A DNA stretch of 37,783 bases from positions 1 to 37,783 of the forward strand of contig JAJQCB010000005.1 in assembly GCA_021203005.1 (NCBI GenBank), read 5' to 3'. The notes beneath the pieces were generated by a model. The model had not been told where the DNA came from. It did not search any database and worked only from the letters and a program-made list of their open reading frames with translations. A program made the translations under genes and the position numbers. Shown here in pieces: positions 33,651 through 34,053 of the stretch (positions within the stretch are counted from its first letter, which is position 1; every line of letters starts with the position of its first letter). This DNA is from Clostridiales bacterium (GTDB lineage Bacteria > Bacillota > Clostridia > Lachnospirales > Lachnospiraceae).

Positions 33651-33690
33651 TGACTTTTTATAAGTTACGATTTGTCGTTGTTTATAGGAC

Positions 33691-34002
33691 GGATGCGTAA
33701 GATGTTCAGGGAAATAGAATCAGTCAACCGGGGGCAACGCTTCGCCGAACTAAGTGCTAACTGCGACTAAGACGCTCAGGAAAGCCTTCGCGCCTAAGTC
33801 TTACTATAAAAGCCCAAGAAGCGGAGCCCAGAGGCGAACGCTGATTGGTTGCTTTTATGTATGCATGCGGCGCTTAGCAAGCCCAAGCCATGGGCGCCGG
33901 GCGAGCTTAGCAAAGTCGTATAGTAAGCACTGGATTTCGTCTCAGCTAAAACCGCCCCTACAGAGTTGCCTGACTCTATTTCCCTGAACATCTTACGCAT
34001 CC
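33691..34002. repeat. 312-bp element with 37-bp terminal inverted repeats, MITE and/or structured-RNA candidate
   Basis: Left 33691-33727 GGATGCGTAAGATGTTCAGGGAAATAGAATCAGTCAA versus right 33966-34002 reverse complement GGATGCGTAAGATGTTCAGGGAAATAGAGTCAGGCAA, 35/37 with the outer 28 perfect; internal nested inverted repeats. Confidence 0.85.
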
Positions 34003-34053
34003 TGTGCCAACTTTAAAGAATAACTGTACGAGAATTTATTCTCCATATAAGGT

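What the first reader, a model, noticed from the sequence alone, without database searches (positions are those of the whole stretch)
33691..34002. 312-bp intergenic element with 37-bp terminal inverted repeats and a dense internal fold
Directly visible: 35/37 terminal inverted repeats (outer 28 perfect). Inside are a 12-bp stem with a 2-nt bulge (33806-33817 with 33845-33858) that encloses an AGCG/CGCT pairing, GCCCA/TGGGC at 33881/33891, and GGGCG-N3-TTAGC pairing with GCTAA-N3-CGCCC (33899-33911 with 33945-33957). A competing 9-bp pair CTTACTATA/TATAGTAAG (33800/33919) shares bases with the first stem. No convincing ORF and no obvious target-site duplication. It sits between divergent promoters. 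Inference: a MITE, a structured ncRNA, or a mobile structured RNA. The ORFs called inside (33754-33987 +, 33794-34000 -) are probably artefacts of this element.
Basis: partly seen in the sequence, partly recalled or inferred. Interest (0 to 1): 0.7.

Follow-up and report, generated by a model that had tools for sequence, protein, structure and literature searches.

The report
Two nested DNA-hairpin repeats
The 312-bp "element" is really two small selfish-looking DNA repeats, one inserted into the tip of the other; the outer one belongs to an undescribed hairpin family scattered through the bacterium's whole taxonomic family, and its two arms stay matched in a way that points to DNA folding rather than to a working RNA.

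Summary
In detail: 38-nt arms, 95% complementary, outer 28 perfect; fold z = -10.6. It is not one element. Outer unit A (about 200 bp) is interrupted at its apex by a separate 119-bp repeat, B (33804-33922). The orthologous site in a sister species (98% identical left flank) holds A without B. A's core occurs in 7 of 20 genomes of the genus, in 34 of 396 of the family (32 of 333 genera) and in no sampled genome outside the family, at 8-44 copies in fully scored genomes, intergenic. Rfam does not hold it. Covariation is overwhelming (36 of 44 pairs changed on both sides; score 0.369 vs 0.145 shuffled), but wobble pairs are no commoner than A-C mismatches (78 vs 90; RNase P of the same genus 33 vs 7, p = 3e-5). 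Pairing therefore seems maintained in DNA, as a hairpin intermediate and/or by one arm templating the other, not as an RNA. Close inverted doublets always face 3' foot to 3' foot (13:0), as in REPINs, but the REP/IS200-type transposase is undetected in 5 of 7 carriers and no mobilising gene is linked. Best reading: a new ERIC/REP/YPAL-like family of dispersed DNA hairpins, hit by a second repeat. Mobility is inferred; the enzyme is unknown.

The parts
33688..33803 (+). Left half of element A: 5' foot GACGG (33688-33692), 5' arm of the outer stem, left side of the core
   Evidence: joined directly to the right half in other copies and at the orthologous site in G001
33804..33922 (+). Element B, 119-bp insertion after TTA at the apex of A (end points ambiguous by 2 bp because of TA repeats)
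   Evidence: absent from the G001 orthologue, AAGTCTTA|GTAAGCAC; independent copies elsewhere in the genome and genus
33923..34007 (+). Right half of element A: right side of the core, 3' arm of the outer stem, 3' foot CCTGTGC
   Evidence: exact 3' boundary not defined by any empty site
33691..33728 (+). 5' arm of the terminal inverted repeat (outer stem of A)
33965..34002 (+). 3' arm of the terminal inverted repeat (outer stem of A)

Best explanation
The interval is a nested pair. A is a non-autonomous dispersed DNA repeat: one long imperfect hairpin of about 200 bp with a conserved irregular core, conserved short feet (GACGG / CCTGTGC) and a 25-30 bp outer stem whose sequence differs between copies but stays paired. 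Shown: multiplicity, patchy presence, conserved core, compensated stems, no wobble preference, B inserted later. Inferred: A spreads as, or is copied through, a folded single-stranded DNA hairpin, and its arms are kept complementary at the DNA level, by hairpin recognition and/or by replication template switching in which one arm is copied into the other. B is a second, unrelated structured repeat that inserted after TTA at the apex of this copy after its lineage parted from G001. No RNA product is needed to explain what is seen.
For: Split matches in own genome; B-free orthologue in G001 and loci without A or B in G017, G013, G015; 34 of 396 family genomes, 8-44 copies in fully scored genomes; covariation far above shuffled and slid controls; G-U no commoner than A-C in core (42 vs 40) and outer stem (36 vs 50), against 33 vs 7 in RNase P of the same genus; same lack of bias in B; sister species lacking A between the same core genes; inverted doublets 13:0 with 3' feet facing.
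Against: No clean insertion footprint or target-site duplication for A; no mobilising gene linked; Y1 transposase undetected in most carriers. In eight orthologous pairs A changes about half as fast as its flanks, which hints at a function in place or at conversion between copies. Copies are related, so the p value is indicative only; two core columns hold fixed G-U pairs.
Confidence: 0.65

Rival explanations
1. A is a multi-copy structured RNA, free-standing or carried in mRNAs (for example a 3'-UTR stability or processing element as reported for ERIC and NEMIS transcripts), under RNA-level selection in place.
For: Very strong covariation and conserved core; slower change than flanks in orthologous copies; many copies lie just downstream of a stop codon in the same orientation.
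Against: No G-U excess over A-C on either strand, unlike RNase P; mixed gene orientation; no Rfam match; no expression data available.
Confidence: 0.17
2. A is a REP/REPIN-like repeat moved by a RAYT or other Y1 transposase that recognises the hairpin and its foot.
For: Hairpin with conserved feet; DNA-level pairing; close inverted doublets always with 3' feet facing, 13:0, p 0.0002, as REPINs are inverted REP doublets (PMC3116915).
Against: Y1_Tnp (PF01797) undetected in 5 of the 7 A-bearing genomes of the genus; hairpin far longer than a REP; no such gene among neighbours. The genomes are drafts, so absence is not proof.
Confidence: 0.08
3. A is a classical MITE: an internally deleted IS with terminal inverted repeats cut by a DDE transposase in trans.
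For: Small, intergenic, AT-rich flanks, long inverted repeats, no ORF.
Against: The ends differ between copies and are paired within copies instead of sharing fixed TIRs; no TSD; no parent IS found.
Confidence: 0.07

Closest known systems
ERIC / IRU / RU-1 (enterobacterial repetitive intergenic consensus, 127 bp)
   Same: Imperfect palindrome, non-coding, intergenic, tens of copies per genome, spread over one taxonomic family group (PMC2229807, PMC10969869)
   Different: Unrelated sequence and host group; A is longer, its outer stem sequence differs between copies, and no TA target-site duplication was seen
YPAL / RU-2 (Yersinia palindromic sequence, 168 bp)
   Same: Intergenic, not AT-rich, inverted repeats, termini without 5'-TA-3' (PMC2229807)
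   Different: YPAL makes target-site duplications of 3-26 bp; none seen for A. Different hosts and sequence
REP / REPIN / BIME
   Same: Extragenic DNA hairpins, inverted doublets (PMC3116915)
   Different: REPs are much shorter and go with a RAYT; Y1 transposase undetected in most carriers here
IS200/IS605-derived non-autonomous elements (compared with B)
   Same: B sits after a short fixed motif (TTA/TTAC) with little or no duplication, has structured ends and occurs in tandem
   Different: No TnpA or TnpB partner found; B-rich G017 lacks a Y1_Tnp match

Membership tests
MITE | Shared terminal inverted repeats across copies | tested here: not met
   Arms pair within a copy but differ between copies; only the short feet are shared
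MITE | Target-site duplication | tested here: inconclusive
   None seen, but spacers around occupied and vacant sites are too diverged to fix the boundaries
MITE | Parent IS with matching ends | tested here: inconclusive
   No recurrent gene next to about 95 loci; whole genomes were not searched for IS ends
REP/REPIN | RAYT / Y1 transposase in the genome | tested here: not met
   PF01797 found in G000 and G002 only among the seven carriers; draft genomes
REP/REPIN | Inverted doublets | tested here: met
   13 of 13 close opposite-strand pairs face 3' to 3'; most copies are single
ERIC | Sequence similarity to the ERIC consensus | not tested
   No direct alignment made; the A core was found only in the window's family
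Structured RNA family (Rfam) | Match to a curated covariance model | tested here: not met
   No match at gathering; only weak chance-level matches at E up to 5
Structured RNA family (Rfam) | RNA-type covariation, with G-U tolerated over A-C | tested here: not met
   78 G-U vs 90 A-C; RNase P control 33 vs 7
IS200/IS605-like (for B) | Insertion next to a fixed short target without duplication | tested here: inconclusive
   TTA/TTAC precedes nearly all copies; a 2-bp TA duplication cannot be told from none

The most novel reading that the evidence does not exclude
A is a new class of mobile DNA that moves as a long folded single strand and re-synthesises one arm from the other (snap-back copying), so that each copy carries its own perfectly matched stem around a fixed core, driven by an unidentified enzyme.
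Probability: 0.15. Interest if true: 0.8.

Novelty: new variant of a known kind. Interest (0 to 1): 0.5.

Why it matters
A family-wide hairpin repeat, not in Rfam, with very strong covariation but no wobble preference is a clean case of structural covariation that should not be taken as proof of a functional RNA. It offers a natural system for asking how DNA hairpin arms stay matched, and it marks a dispersed element whose mobilising enzyme is unknown. The nested insertion also warns that a fold computed across such an interval can mix unrelated elements.

Tried and rejected
Rfam at gathering and permissive thresholds: nothing credible. Phages, plasmids and viral contigs: no match. A hammerhead-like core on the minus strand was considered and dropped because its CTGA box is not conserved across copies (read). 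Cis-regulatory leader as the sole explanation: rejected, gene orientation is mixed. Linked mobilising gene: clustering of ORFs around about 95 loci gave only housekeeping proteins, ABC transporters and orthologous neighbourhoods. Y1 transposase as mobiliser: undetected in most carriers. RNase P class B as a control failed, class A was used instead. Three scans of genome contigs gave no answer, so organism names are unknown. Orthologous comparison with L058 was set aside because its orientation did not align with L054/L057.

Full report
OBSERVATION. The inverted repeat is real: arms 33691-33728 and 33965-34002, 38 nt, 95% complementary, with a fold far stronger than shuffles as RNA (z -10.6) and as single-stranded DNA (z -8.5). 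It lies between an acyl-CoA dehydrogenase/ETF fusion gene on the minus strand and a DUF1292 gene on the plus strand.

TWO ELEMENTS, NOT ONE. Searching the window's own genome gave many copies that match only query positions about 30-116 and 231-312, directly joined, and others that match only about 119-229. So an outer element A is split by an inner element B. A sister species, G001, has the same locus (98% identical left flank) with A intact: AAGTCTTA|GTAAGCAC, where the window has AAGTCTTA-[119 bp]-GTAAGCAC. B is therefore the later arrival in this copy. The orthologous regions of G017, G013 and G015 lack both. A third insert (about 140 nt) sits at one position of A in five sequences from four loci (L044/L120, L131, L122, L123), so composite forms have either spread or been exchanged between loci. 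The A+B junction of the window recurs in L117 of G002; L050 of G001, which by its flanks looks like the same locus, lacks B (read by eye). Exchange between loci or repeated insertion at one spot is unresolved.

FAMILY A. A covariance model of the core finds A in 7 of 20 genomes of the genus and in none of 41 genomes of other genera in a sample of relatives, in 34 of 396 genomes of the family (32 of 333 genera), and, in a class-wide sample, only in genomes of the same family. Eight genomes scored in full had 8-44 matches each (a few low-scoring matches may be spurious). The large searches used strict filters, so these frequencies are lower bounds. Copies are intergenic, with mixed gene orientation.

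STRUCTURE. On 76 copies 95.0% of cells pair (83.1% after shuffling), 36 of 44 pairs change on both sides and the covariation score is 0.369 (shuffled 0.145, sd 0.005; slid structures 0.05-0.10). The 25-30 bp outer stem varies strongly between copies but pairs within each copy: 1727 Watson-Crick, 36 G-U, 50 A-C, 65 other. In the core, unpaired and paired columns are equally conserved on average (entropy 0.66 each).

DNA OR RNA. A helix kept as RNA should tolerate G-U far more than A-C. Where the commonest pair is Watson-Crick, A shows 42 G-U and 40 A-C in the core and 36 and 50 in the outer stem. RNase P RNA of the same genus shows 33 and 7; the contrast gives p = 3e-5. Cells are not independent because copies are related, so that p is indicative. 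Two core columns hold fixed G-U pairs and were left out. B shows the same pattern (4 and 8). The likely reading is that pairing is kept at the DNA level. Template switching during replication can make such two-sided changes in one step (PMC8794818). One orthologous pair, L052/L098, has three compensated pairs and three single changes, where independent mutation would predict almost no compensated ones (my estimate). In the other orthologous pairs single changes dominate, so correction, if real, is occasional.

CONSTRAINT IN PLACE. Summed over eight orthologous pairs the element differs at 72 of 1572 sites and the flanks at 230 of 2344 (my sums). This may mean some function, conversion between copies, or poorly aligned flanks; it is unexplained.

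MOBILITY. Gene pairs such as clpC/radA and dapF/murE (names from my reading of the translated ends, not scanned) carry A in G013 and not in G004, but the rest of the spacer also differs, so no clean insertion footprint or target-site duplication can be read. Copies under 600 bp apart in opposite orientation always face 3' foot to 3' foot (13 of 13, p 0.0002), as in REPINs (PMC3116915). Yet the Y1 transposase is not found in five of seven carriers and no gene recurs beside A.

CONCLUSION. The window holds a copy of an undescribed, family-wide DNA hairpin repeat of the ERIC/REP/YPAL kind (PMC2229807; PMC10969869), interrupted by a second structured repeat. Mobility is inferred and the enzyme unknown. 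Undescribed means no Rfam match and no report found in six searches of an open-access library; candidates listed in supplements, for example of PMC8040213, were not checked.

Noticed in passing
L046:1106-1446 (G000:C50): A B copy ends only a few bases upstream of the tmRNA gene, between it and whatever lies upstream; effect on tmRNA expression unknown.
   Followed up: partly
L044, L120, L131, L122, L123: A third structured insert of about 140 nt, itself with hairpins that vary in step, sits at the same place inside A at four loci.
   Followed up: partly
L223 and L235: B copies head to tail, the end of one (GTCGTTTA) directly followed by the start of the next (CTATGAAA).
   Followed up: no
L118, L227, L229 and L237 (G017): Some B copies carry an extra hairpin (GGATAAGTGAGACAGGAAATCTCTGATTTCC...) inside them: a further level of nesting.
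   Followed up: no
G145:C1 (3.59 Mb contig): A copies from about 1.96 Mb to the end are mostly on the minus strand (15 of 17, counted), which might be a replication-strand bias; the origin was not located.
   Followed up: no
L037, L042 (G000), L061 (G001): The apical stem has one arm rewritten to match the other perfectly (CGCTCAGGAAAG to CGCGAAGTATTG opposite CTTCGCG), the mark expected of template switching.
   Followed up: partly
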